From: Candidatus Kuenenia stuttgartensis
GTDB lineage: Bacteria; Planctomycetota; Planctomycetia; Planctomycetales; Planctomycetaceae
Reading direction: 5' to 3'
Assembly: GCA_945906725.1 (NCBI GenBank)
Contig: CAMDRI010000039.1
Location: 1-36,758, forward strand
DNA: 36,758 nucleotides
Positions 12,269 to 31,197 of this stretch are shown one piece after another. Under the pieces are notes generated by a model. That model made no database searches. It was given only the letters and a program-made list of their open reading frames with translations, and was not told the DNA's origin. The first letter of the stretch is position 1, and each line of letters opens with the position of its first letter. A program made the translations under genes and the position numbers.

Positions 12269-13145
12269 TCGCGACATGCTCGTTGGCTTTGGGTTCTGCG
12301 CGATCGTCGCGAGCGCGGCTGCTCTGCGCGCTGCCGAGCCAGTGCAACTGACTCGCGACGGCCGATTGAAGTTCGCGATGACCGTCAGCTCGAACGGACG
12401 CGAAATCGTGTACTGCGAGTTGGCGAATCCAGCCTTGTACCGGCTGATGAAGTTGAACTTGCAGGACCGCACGTCACAGCCGCTGCACCCGAAAGCTGAG
12501 ACTTCGGAATTCGATCCGGTGTTTGCCGCTGACGGAAAGACGTACGCCTTTCTCAAGACTATCGGCGTCCTGCAAGCCGCGATCGTGATTCACGATGACA
12601 TGGGCAACAAGCTGGGCCAAGTCGCCCCGGCTGGAGGGTTCTCCGGTTTGCGCAGTCCGGCGATTGTTCCCGATCGGTCGCGGGTTTTGTATTCGTTCGG
12701 CGAAGGGGGGCGGCAGCAACTCTTCTCTGCGAAGTTCGACGGCTCAGACCGGCAGACGCTGGCCGATACGCCGGGCATCAACAACTGGCCCGCGTTCTCG
12801 CCCGACGGCCGCACGCTCGTGTTCGGTTCGAGCCGCGATGCCGATTTCGAGATCTACCGCATGAACGCCGACGGCAGTGTTCCGCAACGACTCACCAACA
12901 GTCCGGGCCAGGACATTCGCCCGAAGTTTTCTCCCGATGGAAAACGAATCATCTTCACCAGCCATCGCGACGGCAACGCGGAGATCTACGTCATGCAGGC
13001 CGACGGCTCGCATCCGCAACGAGTGACCCATTCCCCCGAACGCGACGACTACGCCGACTGGCTCCCCGATGGCGAGCACCTTGTGATCGTCCGTGAGCAC
13101 GACGGCTGGCACGATCTGTTTTCGGTGAGCTTGCCGCCGCAATGA
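12255..13145 (+). CDS. Exported PD40/TolB-like beta-propeller
   Basis: 296 residues. ATG 12255 lies within the end of the DUF1501 gene and has GGAGG ten bases upstream; ATG 12276 is an alternative. An N-terminal hydrophobic stretch (MLVGFGFCAIVASAAALRAAE) is a probable signal peptide. After it come repeated PD40 blades: FSPDGRTLVFGSSRDADFEIYRMNADG, FSPDGKRIIFTSHRDGNAEIYVMQADG, then WLPDGEHLVIV. Proteins of this type form six-bladed propellers such as TolB, but TolB's N-terminal domain is absent and there are no tol-pal genes nearby, so it is not called TolB. A periplasmic binding or scaffold role with the DUF1501 partner is inference. Its stop TGA is the first base pair region of a repeat shared with the convergent sulfatase gene. 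Confidence 0.88.
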   Translation: MRCCNRDMLVGFGFCAIVASAAALRAAEPVQLTRDGRLKFAMTVSSNGREIVYCELANPALYRLMKLNLQDRTSQPLHPKAETSEFDPVFAADGKTYAFLKTIGVLQAAIVIHDDMGNKLGQVAPAGGFSGLRSPAIVPDRSRVLYSFGEGGRQQLFSAKFDGSDRQTLADTPGINNWPAFSPDGRTLVFGSSRDADFEIYRMNADGSVPQRLTNSPGQDIRPKFSPDGKRIIFTSHRDGNAEIYVMQADGSHPQRVTHSPERDDYADWLPDGEHLVIVREHDGWHDLFSVSLPPQ

Positions 13146-13167
13146 CGGGCAAGAGTGCCCATCCTAC
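13144..13167. repeat. Single family B repeat arm at two converging stops
   Basis: The sequence GACGGGCA-AGAG-TGCCC-ATCCTAC is one arm of the element found complete at 14464-14539. Its left end overlaps the PD40 stop (TGA 13143-13145). On the minus strand its GTAG head contains the sulfatase stop (TAG 13166-13164). The two genes are thus separated by nothing but this element. Confidence 0.7.
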
Positions 13168-15980
13168 GCCGCGTCTTTCTTCTTTTTCTTCTTGGGCTGA
13201 TCCGGATTGGCCTTTTTGCCGCCACGATTGGCGTTGCCCCACGCCGGCTCGACGTTGCCTTTGTCCCATTCGGCGTAGACGGCTTCGAGTTGCTTGAGCT
13301 TGTCGGCCTCTTGCGAGGCGAGGTCTGACTTCTCACCGATGTCCTTGGCGAGGTTGAACAGCTTCGCACCGTCCCCGATATCGGTGAGCTTCCAATCGCC
13401 TTGCCGGACGGCTCGCTGCCGGCCGAATCGCCAGAAGAGCGCGTCGTGCGGTGAGTCCTTCTTTTCCCCGGTGAGGTACGGCAGCAGGTTGACGCCGTCG
13501 AACTTCCACTCCGGCTTGATGGCAACGCCTGCCGCCGCGAGGGCTGTTGGTTGGACGTCGAGTTGAATGACCAGCCGATCCTCGACCTTGCCAGCCGGCA
13601 GCTTGCCTTTCCACTGCATCAGGAATGGCACGCGGACGCCACCTTCCCAGACCGTCGCTTTGAAACCGTTGAGCGGGGCGTTCGAGGCGGTGTTCACCGC
13701 AGTCGGGCCGCCGTTGTCACTGTGAAAGATGATGAGCGTGTTCTCTTCCAACTTGTACTCGAGCAGTTTGGCCAGCACGTTGCCGATGGCATCATCCAGC
13801 GCCGAGAGCATTCCGGCGAAGGTTCGCCGCTTGTTGTCGGTGATCTTGGGGAAGCGATCAATGTAGCTCTGCGGGGCTTCCATCGGGCCATGCACGGCAT
13901 TGAATGGTAGGTACACGAACCATGGCTTGTTGTGGTTCTTGTCGATGAACTTGTTCGCCTCGCGGGCAAAGTCGAGCGTCGTGAATTCCATTTTGTCGAC
14001 CGGCTCATTGCCGCGCAGGATCGCGTTGCGGCCTTGGCCGATCTGTTGATACGGGTGTGCTCCCCCGAGGAATCCGTAGTACTCGTCGAAACCACGCTTG
14101 AGCGGATGCGAGTCGTCGTCGCCGAGGTGCCATTTGCCGAACATCCCGGTGGCATAACCAGCGTCCTTGAGTCGATTGGCAATCGTGGTCTGTTTGATGC
14201 CGAAGTTCTCGGGAGCGGTCGGTCCGGGATTGAACTCATGGCCGAAGCGTTGCTGATAGCGACCGCTCATCAAACCGGCACGTGTCGGCGAGCAATACGG
14301 GCCGCTCACGTAACCGCTCGTGAAACGGATGCCATTCTTGGCCAGCGAGTCGATGTGCGGTGTCGGGATTTCGCTGTTACCCTGGCAACCGAGTTCTCCC
14401 CAGCCGAGATCGTCGGCGACGATCAGCAGCACGTTGGGCTTGGCGGTGTCCACAGCTTTTTTTGTAGGACGGGCACTCTTGCCCGTCTCTGCGGTTCCGT
14501 CCTCGGAGGCGGACGGCCGGGCAGGAGTGCCCAACCTACTCACCGCGGCGAACTGTTGGTTGAACAGTGTCTTGAACGGGTTCTCGGCCGGCGGGACAGC
14601 TTTTTCGTTGACGAGTTGCGGTTGAACCGATGCCCACCAGCGGTCGTATTCGGCGTCGAGTTGCTTCACGACGTCGGGACTCTTGTCGGAAATGTCGGTC
14701 TTCTCGCCGGGATCGGCTTTCAGATCGAAGAGTTGCCAGTTTTTGGTTTCTCCTTTCGAGGCGGTGACCATTTGGAATTGCGAGTTGCGGACGCTGCACG
14801 TCGCGTACTTGAACTTCGAGCGATCGGCTCCAACAGGCCAGCGGCCGACGTGCGTGAAGAGGGTGCGGTCAGACCAATCGGCGGTCGGATTCGATAGCAG
14901 TGAGACGAGGCTGCGGCCTTCGACTTGTTTCTTCACGTCGTCGTTCAGCTTCGCGCCGGCGAGTTCCGCGAGCGTCGGCAAGAAGTCGACATGCGCCGCG
15001 AGCCGGTCGCAGTCGGCGGGCTTGAGCGTTCCGGGCCAACGCCAGAAGGAGCTGGCTCGAATACCGCCAACGAACGGCGATCCTTTTTGTGCTCGCATTC
15101 CGGCGTTGAAGATTTTCACTCCCGTCGTGCCGCCGTTGTCGTTCATGAAGATGACCAGCGTGTCCCGCTCAATGCCCCACTCGGTCAGTTTTGCGAGCAA
15201 CTTGCCGACGTTGTCGTCGATGTTGGCGATCATGCCGAAGAACTTAGCCGCATTCGGGTCGTCCACCTTGTCGACGTAACGAGCCTCATCTTCCGGCCGC
15301 ACTTGCAACGGGCCGTGAGGGGCATTTGTCGCGATGTGAGCGTAAAACGGCTGCTTGCCTTTGGTCGCCTCAATCCACTTCAACGCCTGGCCGAAGAAGA
15401 CGTCGGTGCAATAGCCGTTGGTCTTCTCGAACTTGCCGTTGTGCAGGATCGCCGGGCTGAAATAGGTGTTGCCTGGCGCGTCGCCGCAGCTTCCCGGATA
15501 CGACTGGCCGATGCCGCCGGCTCCGTGAATGAACATCTCGTCGAACCCACGGCGGCTGGGCCAGTGATCTGGTTCGTCGCCGAGATGCCATTTGCCAAAG
15601 ATTCCTGTCGCGTAGCCGGAGGACTTCAAGACTTGAGCAAGCGTCGTGGCCGACAGCGTCAGCCGTTCGCGTTCGTTGATCGTGTGCGTGACACCGTTGC
15701 GGAACTCATGCCGCCCGGTCATCAACGCCGAGCGTGTCGGCGAGCAAGTCGGGCTGACCATAAAGTCGGTGAAGCGGACTCCTTCGCGATGCAGCCGGTC
15801 GATGTTCGGCGTCTTCAAAATTGGATTGCCGTGACACGACAGATCGCCGTAGCCCTGATCGTCGGTCAGCACGAAGATGATGTTTGGCCGCTTGCCCGCC
15901 AGCGAATCCGCGGCGATCAAGTCCGCAGCCACGAACAGCACCGCGAGACACAGCAACCAGAACAACCCAGAGCGATTCAT
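13164..15980 (-). CDS. Tandem two-domain sulfatase (fused)
   Basis: 938 residues, about twice a normal sulfatase. Residues 1-24 are a signal peptide. Domain 1 (about 30-470) has RPNIIFVLTDDQGYGDL with metal-binding Asp pairs, and the formylglycine motif C79-S-P-T-R. Domain 2 (about 512-925) repeats this as PNVLLIVADDLGWGELG and C563-S-P-T-R-A-G-L-M-S-G-R. Both cysteines would need conversion by a formylglycine-generating enzyme, which is not encoded here. The linker (residues 481-506) is encoded by a 76-bp inverted repeat, and domain 2 has no signal peptide of its own. The C-terminus is Lys-rich (PKKKKKKDAA), as in many planctomycete sulfatases. Sulfated-polysaccharide hydrolysis is the family role; the substrate is unknown. 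Its start overlaps the DUF3592 stop by 4 bp. Confidence 0.92.
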   Translation of the reverse strand: MNRSGLFWLLCLAVLFVAADLIAADSLAGKRPNIIFVLTDDQGYGDLSCHGNPILKTPNIDRLHREGVRFTDFMVSPTCSPTRSALMTGRHEFRNGVTHTINERERLTLSATTLAQVLKSSGYATGIFGKWHLGDEPDHWPSRRGFDEMFIHGAGGIGQSYPGSCGDAPGNTYFSPAILHNGKFEKTNGYCTDVFFGQALKWIEATKGKQPFYAHIATNAPHGPLQVRPEDEARYVDKVDDPNAAKFFGMIANIDDNVGKLLAKLTEWGIERDTLVIFMNDNGGTTGVKIFNAGMRAQKGSPFVGGIRASSFWRWPGTLKPADCDRLAAHVDFLPTLAELAGAKLNDDVKKQVEGRSLVSLLSNPTADWSDRTLFTHVGRWPVGADRSKFKYATCSVRNSQFQMVTASKGETKNWQLFDLKADPGEKTDISDKSPDVVKQLDAEYDRWWASVQPQLVNEKAVPPAENPFKTLFNQQFAAVSRLGTPARPSASEDGTAETGKSARPTKKAVDTAKPNVLLIVADDLGWGELGCQGNSEIPTPHIDSLAKNGIRFTSGYVSGPYCSPTRAGLMSGRYQQRFGHEFNPGPTAPENFGIKQTTIANRLKDAGYATGMFGKWHLGDDDSHPLKRGFDEYYGFLGGAHPYQQIGQGRNAILRGNEPVDKMEFTTLDFAREANKFIDKNHNKPWFVYLPFNAVHGPMEAPQSYIDRFPKITDNKRRTFAGMLSALDDAIGNVLAKLLEYKLEENTLIIFHSDNGGPTAVNTASNAPLNGFKATVWEGGVRVPFLMQWKGKLPAGKVEDRLVIQLDVQPTALAAAGVAIKPEWKFDGVNLLPYLTGEKKDSPHDALFWRFGRQRAVRQGDWKLTDIGDGAKLFNLAKDIGEKSDLASQEADKLKQLEAVYAEWDKGNVEPAWGNANRGGKKANPDQPKKKKKKDAA
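14464..14539. repeat. Complete REPIN-like element, family B, inside sulfatase gene
   Basis: A 76-bp element with GTAG at 14464-14467 and CTAC at 14536-14539. Its arms are ACGGGCA-CTCT-TGCCCGT on the left and the inverse of GTAGGTTGGGCACTCCTGCCCG on the right, so each arm can form its own hairpin. It is translated as a Ser/Thr/Ala/Pro-rich linker between the two sulfatase domains. 76 is not a multiple of three. Confidence 0.8.
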
Positions 15981-16543
15981 TCTCCAGCCCTTTCATCGAG
16001 GACGCTCGACGTGCCATCTGTGTTCGCATTTTCGTCCGTGGGCGGCGAGGCGGATGCTCGGAACCAGCGGGTAACGATGAGGATTCCGATGATCGTCAGC
16101 AGCACAACGCCGATTCCGCCAAAGATGGCCGGAAACAGCCAGAGCGTTACAAACGAGTCGATGCGACAGACCGCCAAGTCCTGCGGGTCGTACAAGACCG
16201 TCACTTTGTCGCCGACATCAAACTGCGGCGGCGAGGTGGACAGCCCCGATTGAAACTCATGCCGCTCTCCGCCGACGAAAAACTCCACCACAGGAGCAAC
16301 GCTCCTCTCCATTCCCACCTGTTCCATCTGTCCCACCGGTTGCTCCTGCCTCACCTGCCGAATGACCGTCCCTTCGGCTCGTTGCGCTACCGAGACGACC
16401 GACCACGACGACCAGGCCATCCCCGCGCCGACGAGACTGAAGATCAAGCCGAATAGCCCAAAAACGATGGCGAGGAAGAGGTCCTTGGAACCCGCATCGG
16501 AGGATCGGCGGCGATGTGACTTGATACGCGACATAAAACTCAC
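15977..16543 (-). CDS. DUF3592 membrane protein
   Basis: 188 residues from GTG 16543, which has GAGG five bases upstream; an ATG at 16534 would shorten it by three. There is one transmembrane segment near residues 22-47 (DLFLAIVFGLFGLIFSLVGAGMAW) and a second near 140-160 (LWLFPAIFGGIGVVLLTIIGILI). Between them is the DUF3592 extracytoplasmic beta domain: RAEGTVIRQVRQEQ, then APVVEFFVGGERHEF and FDVGDKVTVLYDPQDLAVCRIDSF. The function of DUF3592 is unknown; the family is often encoded near exported or envelope proteins. It is the middle gene of sppA - DUF3592 - sulfatase, 6 bp after sppA and overlapping the sulfatase start (ATGA), so cotranslation is likely. Confidence 0.88.
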   Translation of the reverse strand: MSFMSRIKSHRRRSSDAGSKDLFLAIVFGLFGLIFSLVGAGMAWSSWSVVSVAQRAEGTVIRQVRQEQPVGQMEQVGMERSVAPVVEFFVGGERHEFQSGLSTSPPQFDVGDKVTVLYDPQDLAVCRIDSFVTLWLFPAIFGGIGVVLLTIIGILIVTRWFRASASPPTDENANTDGTSSVLDERAGE

Positions 16544-28935: not shown

Positions 28936-31197
28936 TCAGCGAGCAGCGGCAGATTGCCCCTCAGTCGCCTCATCCTGGAAGAAGTCGATCTTTCCGGTGA
29001 CGACATCGTAGAGCGCGCCGACAACGGCGATTCGGCCTTCGTGGACCAGTCGGTTGATCGTGAGGCTTTCCCGTTGGATGCGTTCGACGGTGTGGATGAC
29101 ATTTCGGCGGGCGACGGCTTCGATGAAATTGGCTCGATCATTCTCAGACCATTGCTCCAGATGTTGGCACGATGGCAAATCGATCGCACCTTGTATCTCG
29201 CGAATGATCGACTCCAGATGCTGACAACCGGTGGCTTGCTCGGCGGTGGACTGCGAGCCAGCGAGGTTGACGGCGGCCGTCACCGCGCCGCATTGAGTGT
29301 GTCCGACAACGACAATCAGCTTCGCTCCGGTGACGGCACAGCCATATTCCATGCTGCCGAGTATCTTATTGCTGATGATATTGCCCGCGATGCGGATGCT
29401 GAAAATGTCTCCCAATCCCAGATCGAAGATCAACTCGGATGGCGTGCGTGAATCAATGCAACTCAAGAGCACCGCCAACGGGTGCTGCCCCAAGGCGGTC
29501 GCTTGGAGTTGGCGATCCAAATCCCGCGTCAATCGCTTTCCCGTGCGAAAGCGCTCGTTGCCCTCTTCGAGAATCTTCAACACTTGAGCCGGCGTGAACA
29601 GCTCTTGCAGATCGCGGGTCGAATAATCCACATATTGAATCTCGTTCTGAAATTGATACTTGTCCCGAAAGCCGCGAAGGCTGACTTGCACGCCGCGGAT
29701 TGGCGCGGTCTGCTCCTTGAAATCACGAATCAGGCTGAGGATGTCCGGGTCGATGTAGACCGTGTTGGCACCGTCCAACAGGATGTGGCCGCCGCGTGGG
29801 ATCGAATTGAAGACTTTGTCCAGAGCCGCTCGATTCAGAAAACTGACCTGGTTGGCCAGTTCCACATGCAAGACATCGCCACCCAAATGCCGTTCCACAA
29901 TGGTCCTGAGCGGCCGCCGCAGATTGCTGCTCAAGCTAAACGCGAGACTGACGGCCAGACCGATCAAGATGCCGATCAGCAAGTCGGTCATTACGATCGA
30001 AACGACGGTCAGGATGAACGGCAGGAACTGAAAGTGGCCTTCGTTCCACATCTGTCGAAACAACGCGGGACTGGCCAGCTTGAGACCGGTCACCAACAAA
30101 ATCGCGGCCAGACACGACAGCGGAATGAAGTTGAGTGACGTCGACAAGAACATCACCGACACCAACAACAACAAACCATGCACGATCGTTGCCAGCTTGG
30201 TCTGTCCGCCGGCGTTGATGTTCACCGAACTCCGCACAATCACCGATGTCACCGGCAGACCGCCGATGAGTCCCGCCAGCACGTTGCCGATCCCTTGCGC
30301 CACCAACTCGCGGCTGGGCGGCGATGAACGCTGCCGACGATCCAGCTTGTCGACCGCTTCCAGATTCAACAGCGTTTCCAGCGAAGCAACGATCGCAATC
30401 GTGATCCCGGCGGTATACACGGCGGGATTCCCGATCTGCGAAAAATCGGGCAGCTTGAGAAACCCCAAGAAGTCCCGCACAGAACTTGAGACCGGCACCT
30501 GAACCAAGTGGCTGGCCTCAATCAGCCACTCGTCTCCCCAATGCTCAAACAACCGCGCCAGTCCGACACCCAACAGCACAACAATCAACGGAGCGGGCAC
30601 GATCGACTTCTTGAGCCTCGGAACCCGGTCCCAGATCACCAGCAGCGCGATCGACACGAGTCCGATGAGGGCCGCGCCTCGATGCAGGTCGCCGATCATT
30701 GCCAGGATTTCCGACAGCGTGTTCTCGTGGTCTGGCTGTGAAAACGACATTTCCCCTTCGGGATCGGTGTCGTGTCCCAGGACGTGCGGAATCTGTTTCA
30801 GTATCAAGATGACGCCGATCGCCGCGAGCAATCCTTTGATGACGCTGCTGGGAACAAACGCCGACAAAACTCCGGCCCGCGCCAATCCCAAGCCAATTTG
30901 GATCAGCCCGCCAATCATCACCGCCAACAAGAACGTCTCGAACGACCCGAGATGTGCGATCTGTGCCGCCACGACCGCCGTCAGCCCGGCGGCCGGCCCA
31001 CTGACGCTCGTGTGCGATTGACTCAGGACGCCGACGACAAGACCGCCGATGATTCCGGCCAGCAGACCTGAAAATAGCGGGGCGTTCGACGCCAATGCGA
31101 CACCCAAGCACAACGGCAGGGCCACGAGAAAGACGACCATGCCAGCGATCAAGTCGCTGGGCACTGTGGCTCTCGAAAAAACTTTGGTCTGGGGCAT
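28936..31197 (-). CDS. SulP anion transporter fused to beta-carbonic anhydrase
   Basis: 753 residues in three parts. Residues 1-430 are a SulP (SLC26-like) membrane domain with about ten to twelve helices (VPSDLIAGMVVFLVALPLCLGVALAS, GLTAVVAAQIAHLG, VIVRSSVNINAGGQTKLA). Residues 440-540 are a STAS-like domain (GGHILLDGANTVYIDPDIL). Residues 550-753 are a beta-carbonic anhydrase: SCIDSR with zinc Cys580 and Asp582-Arg584, and GHTQC with zinc His633 and Cys636, then LIVVVGHTQCGAVTAA. SulP-carbonic anhydrase fusions are known and are thought to import bicarbonate and interconvert it with CO2. Here all catalytic residues look intact, so the enzyme should be active. ATG 31197 gives a normal SulP N-terminus. 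The upstream 31198-31409 has no other gene. Confidence 0.95.
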   Translation of the reverse strand: MPQTKVFSRATVPSDLIAGMVVFLVALPLCLGVALASNAPLFSGLLAGIIGGLVVGVLSQSHTSVSGPAAGLTAVVAAQIAHLGSFETFLLAVMIGGLIQIGLGLARAGVLSAFVPSSVIKGLLAAIGVILILKQIPHVLGHDTDPEGEMSFSQPDHENTLSEILAMIGDLHRGAALIGLVSIALLVIWDRVPRLKKSIVPAPLIVVLLGVGLARLFEHWGDEWLIEASHLVQVPVSSSVRDFLGFLKLPDFSQIGNPAVYTAGITIAIVASLETLLNLEAVDKLDRRQRSSPPSRELVAQGIGNVLAGLIGGLPVTSVIVRSSVNINAGGQTKLATIVHGLLLLVSVMFLSTSLNFIPLSCLAAILLVTGLKLASPALFRQMWNEGHFQFLPFILTVVSIVMTDLLIGILIGLAVSLAFSLSSNLRRPLRTIVERHLGGDVLHVELANQVSFLNRAALDKVFNSIPRGGHILLDGANTVYIDPDILSLIRDFKEQTAPIRGVQVSLRGFRDKYQFQNEIQYVDYSTRDLQELFTPAQVLKILEEGNERFRTGKRLTRDLDRQLQATALGQHPLAVLLSCIDSRTPSELIFDLGLGDIFSIRIAGNIISNKILGSMEYGCAVTGAKLIVVVGHTQCGAVTAAVNLAGSQSTAEQATGCQHLESIIREIQGAIDLPSCQHLEQWSENDRANFIEAVARRNVIHTVERIQRESLTINRLVHEGRIAVVGALYDVVTGKIDFFQDEATEGQSAAAR

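What the first reader, a model, noticed from the sequence alone, without database searches (positions are those of the whole stretch)
13164..15980. Two sulfatases joined through an inserted palindromic element
The two complete sulfatase domains, each with its own C-S-P-T-R formylglycine site, are joined by a linker of about 26 residues (about 481-506). This linker is exactly the translation of a 76-bp REPIN-like element (14464-14539) with GTAG/CTAC ends. The second domain has no signal peptide, and the first has no stop at the place where a single sulfatase would end. Inference: a repeat inserted at the junction of two adjacent sulfatase genes and made one reading frame of both, perhaps with loss of the second gene's leader. 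A two-headed exported sulfatase with two different substrate pockets could act processively on one sulfated polymer.
Basis: partly seen in the sequence, partly recalled or inferred. Interest (0 to 1): 0.68.

Follow-up and report, generated by a model that had tools for sequence, protein, structure and literature searches.

The report
Two-sulfatase enzyme joined by translated repeat
A freshwater planctomycete has a real exported protein with two sulfatase enzymes in one chain, linked by the translation of a common palindromic repeat; relatives indicate that the repeat already sat inside the first gene and that a later deletion, not the repeat's insertion, fused the two genes.

Summary
The 938-residue ORF (13164-15980, minus strand) has two full sulfatase domains, each with a CSPTR site. 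Residues 481-506 are exactly the translation of a 76-bp GTAG...CTAC head-to-head repeat from an abundant family (167 end-hits in this genome, 0 for the reversed control). Congener G139 carries the same fused gene at 92% identity with a decayed element, so it is not an assembly error.

In four congeners (G129, G148, G056, G134) two separate genes lie side by side: sulfatase1-linker-SGNH esterase, then sulfatase2 with its own signal peptide. G148 has the same element at the same codon of the sulfatase1-SGNH linker, without fusion; G114 and G134 have a different palindromic repeat there. Best reading: the repeat entered an existing flexible linker, and a later deletion of roughly 0.8-0.9 kb (esterase, stop, spacer, signal peptide) fused the genes. 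The esterase is absent genome-wide. G150, G083 and G114 show other losses in this segment.

Two-sulfatase fusions (PMC4807772) and translated GTAG repeats (PMC3733652) are already published. The added value is the resolved order of events, and evidence that the same protein loops are colonised repeatedly by different repeats. Processivity is untested.

The parts
13164..15980 (-). Fused two-sulfatase gene, 938 aa
   Evidence: orthologue L058:372-3191 in G139
15909..15980 (-). N-terminal signal peptide (residues about 1-24, MNRSGLFWLLCLAVLFVAADLIAA)
   Evidence: read from the sequence; no signal-peptide predictor was run
14541..15902 (-). Sulfatase domain 1 (residues 27-480), Cys79 in CSPTR
   Evidence: Pfam Sulfatase and SGSH_C; nearest solved structure 6bia, iota-carrageenan sulfatase group, E 5.8e-64
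14464..14539 (-). GTAG/CTAC head-to-head palindromic repeat (REP dimer), translated as residues 481-506: the inter-domain linker
13227..14450 (-). Sulfatase domain 2 (residues 511-918), Cys563 in CSPTR, no leader
   Evidence: Pfam Sulfatase 515-819; nearest solved structure 6prm, exo-4S-kappa-carrageenan sulfatase, E 1.1e-99
13137..13167 (-). Single GTAG repeat at the 3' end of the gene; its GTAG supplies the TAG stop codon (13164-13166). The same arrangement is seen in G139, G129 and G056
15977..16543 (-). DUF3592 gene immediately upstream; its end overlaps the sulfatase start by 4 bases; shared with G139 and G122

Best explanation
The ancestral locus was [sulfatase1 - Lys/Ala linker - SGNH esterase] followed by a separate, exported [sulfatase2]. 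A GTAG REP dimer entered the linker in frame and was tolerated because the linker is flexible. In the lineage of this genome and G139, a deletion then removed the SGNH domain, its stop codon, the spacer and the start and signal peptide of sulfatase2. It left the element as the linker and joined mature sulfatase2 in frame to sulfatase1. The product is one secreted polypeptide with two S1-type formylglycine sulfatase domains. Shown: the two domains, the translated element, the unfused layout in relatives, the element at the same codon in an unfused relative, and absence of the esterase. Inferred: that the element came first, that there was one deletion event, that the protein is exported, and that both domains are active.
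For: Separate genes with SGNH and a leader occur in G129, G148, G056 and G134; SGNH is confirmed as Lipase_GDSL_2 in G129 and G056. Outside the genus, L106 also has sulfatase1-SGNH in one frame. In G144 sulfatase2 is a standalone gene with its own signal peptide. The element is at the same codon with the same GTGA flank in unfused G148, and the spacer of the G000 element scores higher against G148 and G139 (14.5, 12.5) than against other dimers of this genome (best 8.5). SGNH is absent genome-wide at E<=1e-3 from G000, G139 and G150. The locus is syntenic: DUF1501 and PD40 genes on one side, with the DUF3592 gene shared by G000, G139 and G122. Other losses in the same segment: G150 keeps only the C-terminal remnant of sulfatase2, G083 only its leader remnant, and G114 has no sulfatase2 there. 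G134 carries an exact direct repeat of about 33 bp (another palindromic family) in the linker and between the genes, a possible substrate for such deletions. G000 versus G139 dN/dS is 0.094 for domain 1 and 0.047 for domain 2.
Against: The domain-1 tree does not group G000 with G139. AU p = 0.146 does not reject grouping, and the domain-2 tree groups them only weakly (70/72). The exact joints differ (KKAV-DTAKPNV versus SPNKIA-AKPNV), so two independent deletions remain possible. G148 belongs to a different clade by the Der tree, so its element could be an independent insertion at a preferred site; by plain identity its spacer is no closer to that of G000 (0.69) than the best other dimer (0.72). 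No second copy of the GTAG element remains at the breakpoint to prove repeat-mediated deletion.
Confidence: 0.8

Rival explanations
1. One reading: the element inserted into the intergenic junction of two directly adjacent sulfatase genes and itself opened one reading frame through both.
For: The element lies exactly between the domains, and the element is read without stops in the frames used here and in other ORFs.
Against: No congener has sulfatase1 and sulfatase2 directly adjacent here without the SGNH domain between them; relatives carry the element or another repeat inside the sulfatase1-SGNH linker. The leader and start of gene 2 are missing, which an insertion does not explain.
Confidence: 0.06
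2. Two independent deletions in G000 and G139 produced two similar fusions at the same REP-bearing linker.
For: Different joint sequences; the domain-1 tree separates the two; the segment is lost in several ways in G150, G083 and G114.
Against: Shared DUF3592 neighbour and leader type, the domain-2 tree groups them weakly, and AU p 0.146 does not reject one clade.
Confidence: 0.3
3. The element entered the linker after the fusion, at the same site as an independent insertion in G148.
For: G148 lies in another clade; loops in this genus are hit repeatedly by repeats.
Against: Same codon and same GTGA flank in G000 and G148; spacer alignment score higher than to any other dimer examined.
Confidence: 0.15
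4. Assembly or sequencing artefact that hides a stop between the genes.
For: The window's genome is a fragmented assembly of 268 contigs.
Against: The same fusion without stops is found in two species at 92% identity, and domain identity is high up to the joint.
Confidence: 0.02

Closest known systems
Two-sulfatase-domain genes of Porphyra planctomycetes P1 and P2 (PMC4807772)
   [quoted passage not shown] same phylum.
   Different: The passage read gives no account of the linker, of a repeat or of intermediate steps. Other domain types are reported there (arylsulfatase A-like and iduronate-2-sulfatase/choline sulfatase-like); here both nearest solved structures are carrageenan sulfatases.
Intragenic GTAG REP elements (Di Nocera et al. 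2013, PMC3733652), compared there with Rickettsia palindromic elements
   Same: GTAG-tagged palindromes, often dimers, translated in frame as 20-30 residues inside proteins; reported in Planctomycetes and the PVC group; REP ends supplying TAG stop codons.
   Different: Here the insert ends up as the linker of a two-enzyme fusion, and the same site is occupied by different repeat families in different species.
S1 sulfatases of carrageenan catabolism (PDB 6prm, 6bia, 6b0j)
   Same: Sequence homologues of both domains over most of their length with aligned motifs.
   Different: The matched chains are 450-480 residues, one domain each; the substrate of the present domains is unknown.

Membership tests
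Type I (formylglycine) sulfatase, Pfam PF00884 | Full-length Sulfatase domain, twice | tested here: met
   two stretches, best 515-819 covering profile 1-301
Type I (formylglycine) sulfatase, Pfam PF00884 | C-x-P-x-R maturation motif and conserved active-site motifs in both domains | tested here: met
   CSPTR at 79 and 563, KWHLG at 130 and 616, DNGG at 281 and 755; alignments to 6prm and 6bia
Type I (formylglycine) sulfatase, Pfam PF00884 | Sulfatase activity and formylglycine modification | not testable with these tools
   needs biochemistry
GTAG-tagged REP dimer (REPIN-like) | GTAG at the outer ends of two inverted palindromic units with a variable spacer, dispersed in many copies | tested here: met
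   GTAG...CTAC head-to-head dimers of 51-89 bp with variable spacers; 167 end-hits
GTAG-tagged REP dimer (REPIN-like) | Associated RAYT transposase (Y1_Tnp) flanked by the repeats | tested here: inconclusive
   four Y1_Tnp genes over the cut-off; none has this repeat within the fetched flanks (up to 1.5 kb, up to 4 mismatches)
Two-sulfatase fusion protein | One uninterrupted frame through both domains in more than one genome | tested here: met
   G000 and G139; unrelated fusions in L051 and L107
Exported protein | Single N-terminal Sec-type leader, none before domain 2 | tested here: inconclusive
   read from the sequence; no predictor available; unfused sulfatase2 relatives have a leader

The most novel reading that the evidence does not exclude
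Palindromic repeat families in this genus repeatedly land in the same few permissive protein loops and linkers. Examples are the sulfatase1 linker and the IscS loop after EANNLAIKG, where different species carry different inserts. Such REP-bearing linkers then act as breakpoints at which domains are deleted or swapped, making REP repeats a recurrent engine of domain shuffling.
Probability: 0.3. Interest if true: 0.65.

Novelty: new member of a known kind. Interest (0 to 1): 0.4.

Why it matters
It gives a step-by-step case of how a bacterial two-enzyme protein arose. A mobile palindromic repeat occupied a flexible linker, and deletion across that region swapped an esterase domain for a second sulfatase. 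It also shows that the same protein loops are occupied by different inserts in sister species, which can be tested systematically across planctomycetes.

Tried and rejected
(1) Insertion-made fusion: rejected on the congener layouts. (2) Assembly artefact: rejected, same fusion in G139. (3) Exact direct repeats of 10 bp or more around the lost segment in G129, G148 and G056: none found; only G134 has them, from another repeat family. (4) A mixed alignment for folding the whole protein (A1) appears to have placed sulfatase2-only sequences on domain 1, so no structure was predicted; the relative orientation of the two domains would not have been reliable anyway. (5) RAYT genes near this repeat: none among the four Y1_Tnp genes. 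(6) The repeat in viral contigs: only two contigs with exact matches, not pursued. (7) A held paper on REP-made gene fusions: the one search made found nothing relevant.

Full report
What is there. The ORF at 13164-15980 on the minus strand encodes 938 residues without a stop. Pfam finds Sulfatase twice. CSPTR, KWHLG and DNGG motifs occur in both halves (residues 79/563, 130/616, 281/755). The nearest solved structures are 6bia (iota-carrageenan sulfatase group) for domain 1 (E 5.8e-64) and 6prm (exo-4S-kappa-carrageenan sulfatase) for domain 2 (E 1.1e-99). This does not establish the substrate. Residues 481-506 are the translation of 14464-14539, a 76-bp GTAG...CTAC palindrome with a highly significant hairpin.

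The element. It is a head-to-head dimer of a GTAG-tagged repeat, one of many: 167 end-hits in this genome at up to one mismatch against none for the reversed pattern, and present in all 12 genomes of the genus. The dimers examined are 51-89 bp with variable spacers. A single copy at the 3' end of the fused gene supplies its TAG stop codon, and does so in G139, G129 and G056 too. GTAG REPs, including translated ones and ones that provide stop codons, are described in PMC3733652, so the element itself is a known kind.

The relatives. The genus has 12 held genomes. G139 has the same fused gene, 92% identical, with a decayed element. G129, G148, G056 and G134 have two neighbouring genes: sulfatase1-linker-SGNH hydrolase (about 700-730 codons; Lipase_GDSL_2 in the two tested, G129 and G056), a stop, a spacer, then sulfatase2 with its own signal peptide. 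In G134 the sulfatase2 frame has an internal TAG. G114 keeps sulfatase1-SGNH but has no sulfatase2 at the locus. G083 has sulfatase1 alone plus a remnant of the sulfatase2 leader. G150 has sulfatase1, a repeat in the linker followed by an early stop, and only a C-terminal remnant of sulfatase2. G144 has sulfatase1 and a leader-bearing sulfatase2 on different contigs. G122's contig ends inside domain 1, so its state is unknown. Outside the genus, L106 has sulfatase1-SGNH in one frame. So SGNH fused to sulfatase1 with a separate sulfatase2 is the older layout, and the sulfatase-sulfatase fusion is derived.

Order of events. In unfused G148 the same kind of element sits at the same codon (FAA|VSRSGTPARPS) with the same GTGA before it. 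The spacer of the G000 element aligns with a higher score to those of G148 and G139 than to other dimers of G000, though plain identity does not separate them. In G114 and G134 a different palindromic repeat (GGCGAGCGGGGCGGCGTCAGCCCCC...) occupies the same linker in frame; in G129 and G056 the linker is a plain Lys/Ala stretch. The element therefore most likely entered a linker that already existed. The fusion itself is a net loss of about 0.77-0.92 kb between the domains (864 nt in G129 and 1017 nt in G148 against 96 nt in G139, from the coordinates). It removed the esterase, stop, spacer and signal peptide, and joined close to the mature start of sulfatase2. The esterase is not found elsewhere in G000 or G139. 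Whether the repeat caused the deletion is not shown: G134 has an exact direct repeat of about 33 bp flanking the esterase segment, but from the other repeat family.

One fusion or two. A Der tree puts G000, G139, G122, G129, G056 and one of two G150 copies in one clade, and G083, G114, G148 and the other G150 copy in another. The sulfatase trees are poorly resolved and conflict with it, which suggests exchange of the locus. G000 and G139 are not sisters in the domain-1 tree but are not rejected as a clade (AU p 0.146), and they group weakly in the domain-2 tree. The DUF3592 gene shared upstream by G000, G139 and G122 favours one fusion; the different joint sequences leave two possible.

Function. 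Both domains stay under purifying selection between the fused genes (dN/dS 0.094 and 0.047), so both are probably in use. The likely outcome is a single secreted polypeptide with two sulfatase sites at fixed stoichiometry, with the esterase lost. Processive action is speculation.

Wider pattern. Of about 42 element sites fetched from this genome, 10 further ORFs that span an element were scanned; 8 have Pfam domains on both sides of or across the element, including an IscS-type cysteine desulfurase, protoporphyrinogen oxidase and PurL. The IscS loop after EANNLAIKG carries this element in G000, G148 and G129, other insert sequences in other congeners, and little or nothing in G122 and G139. 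The sulfatase linker is thus one case of a general habit. Unrelated two-sulfatase fusions occur in L051 and L107 and were reported in Porphyra planctomycetes (PMC4807772).

Source. 

Verdict.

Noticed in passing
L027:819-2426 (G000 C23:18970-19030): IscS-type cysteine desulfurase carries the GTAG dimer in frame in the loop after EANNLAIKG; G148 and G129 carry the same kind of insert there, G150/G134/G083/G114 carry other insert sequences, G122 essentially none.
   Followed up: partly
L025, L004, L008, L003, L002, L013, L206: The same element translated in frame inside protoporphyrinogen oxidase, PurL, DUF1553, DUF7133, DUF1549/1553, UvrD/PDDEXK and FAD-oxidase proteins.
   Followed up: partly
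L064:5001-5837 (G134): A second palindromic family (GGCGAGCGGGGCGGCG...) is present both in the sulfatase1-SGNH linker and between the two genes, giving an exact direct repeat of about 33 bp around the esterase.
   Followed up: partly
L129 (G150) and L062 (G083): Decayed remnants of sulfatase2 at the orthologous position: only a C-terminal part in G150 and only the leader in G083.
   Followed up: partly
L051 and L107: Independent two-sulfatase fusions with other second domains in a family member (G094) and an Opitutales genome.
   Followed up: no
G000 C96:416-760, C140:1993-2337, C137:1701-2039, C82:3003-3320: Four Y1_Tnp (RAYT-type) transposase genes, none with this GTAG repeat in the fetched flanks.
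   Followed up: partly
window 28936-31197 (-): Sulfate permease fused to a carbonic anhydrase domain in one ORF.
   Followed up: no
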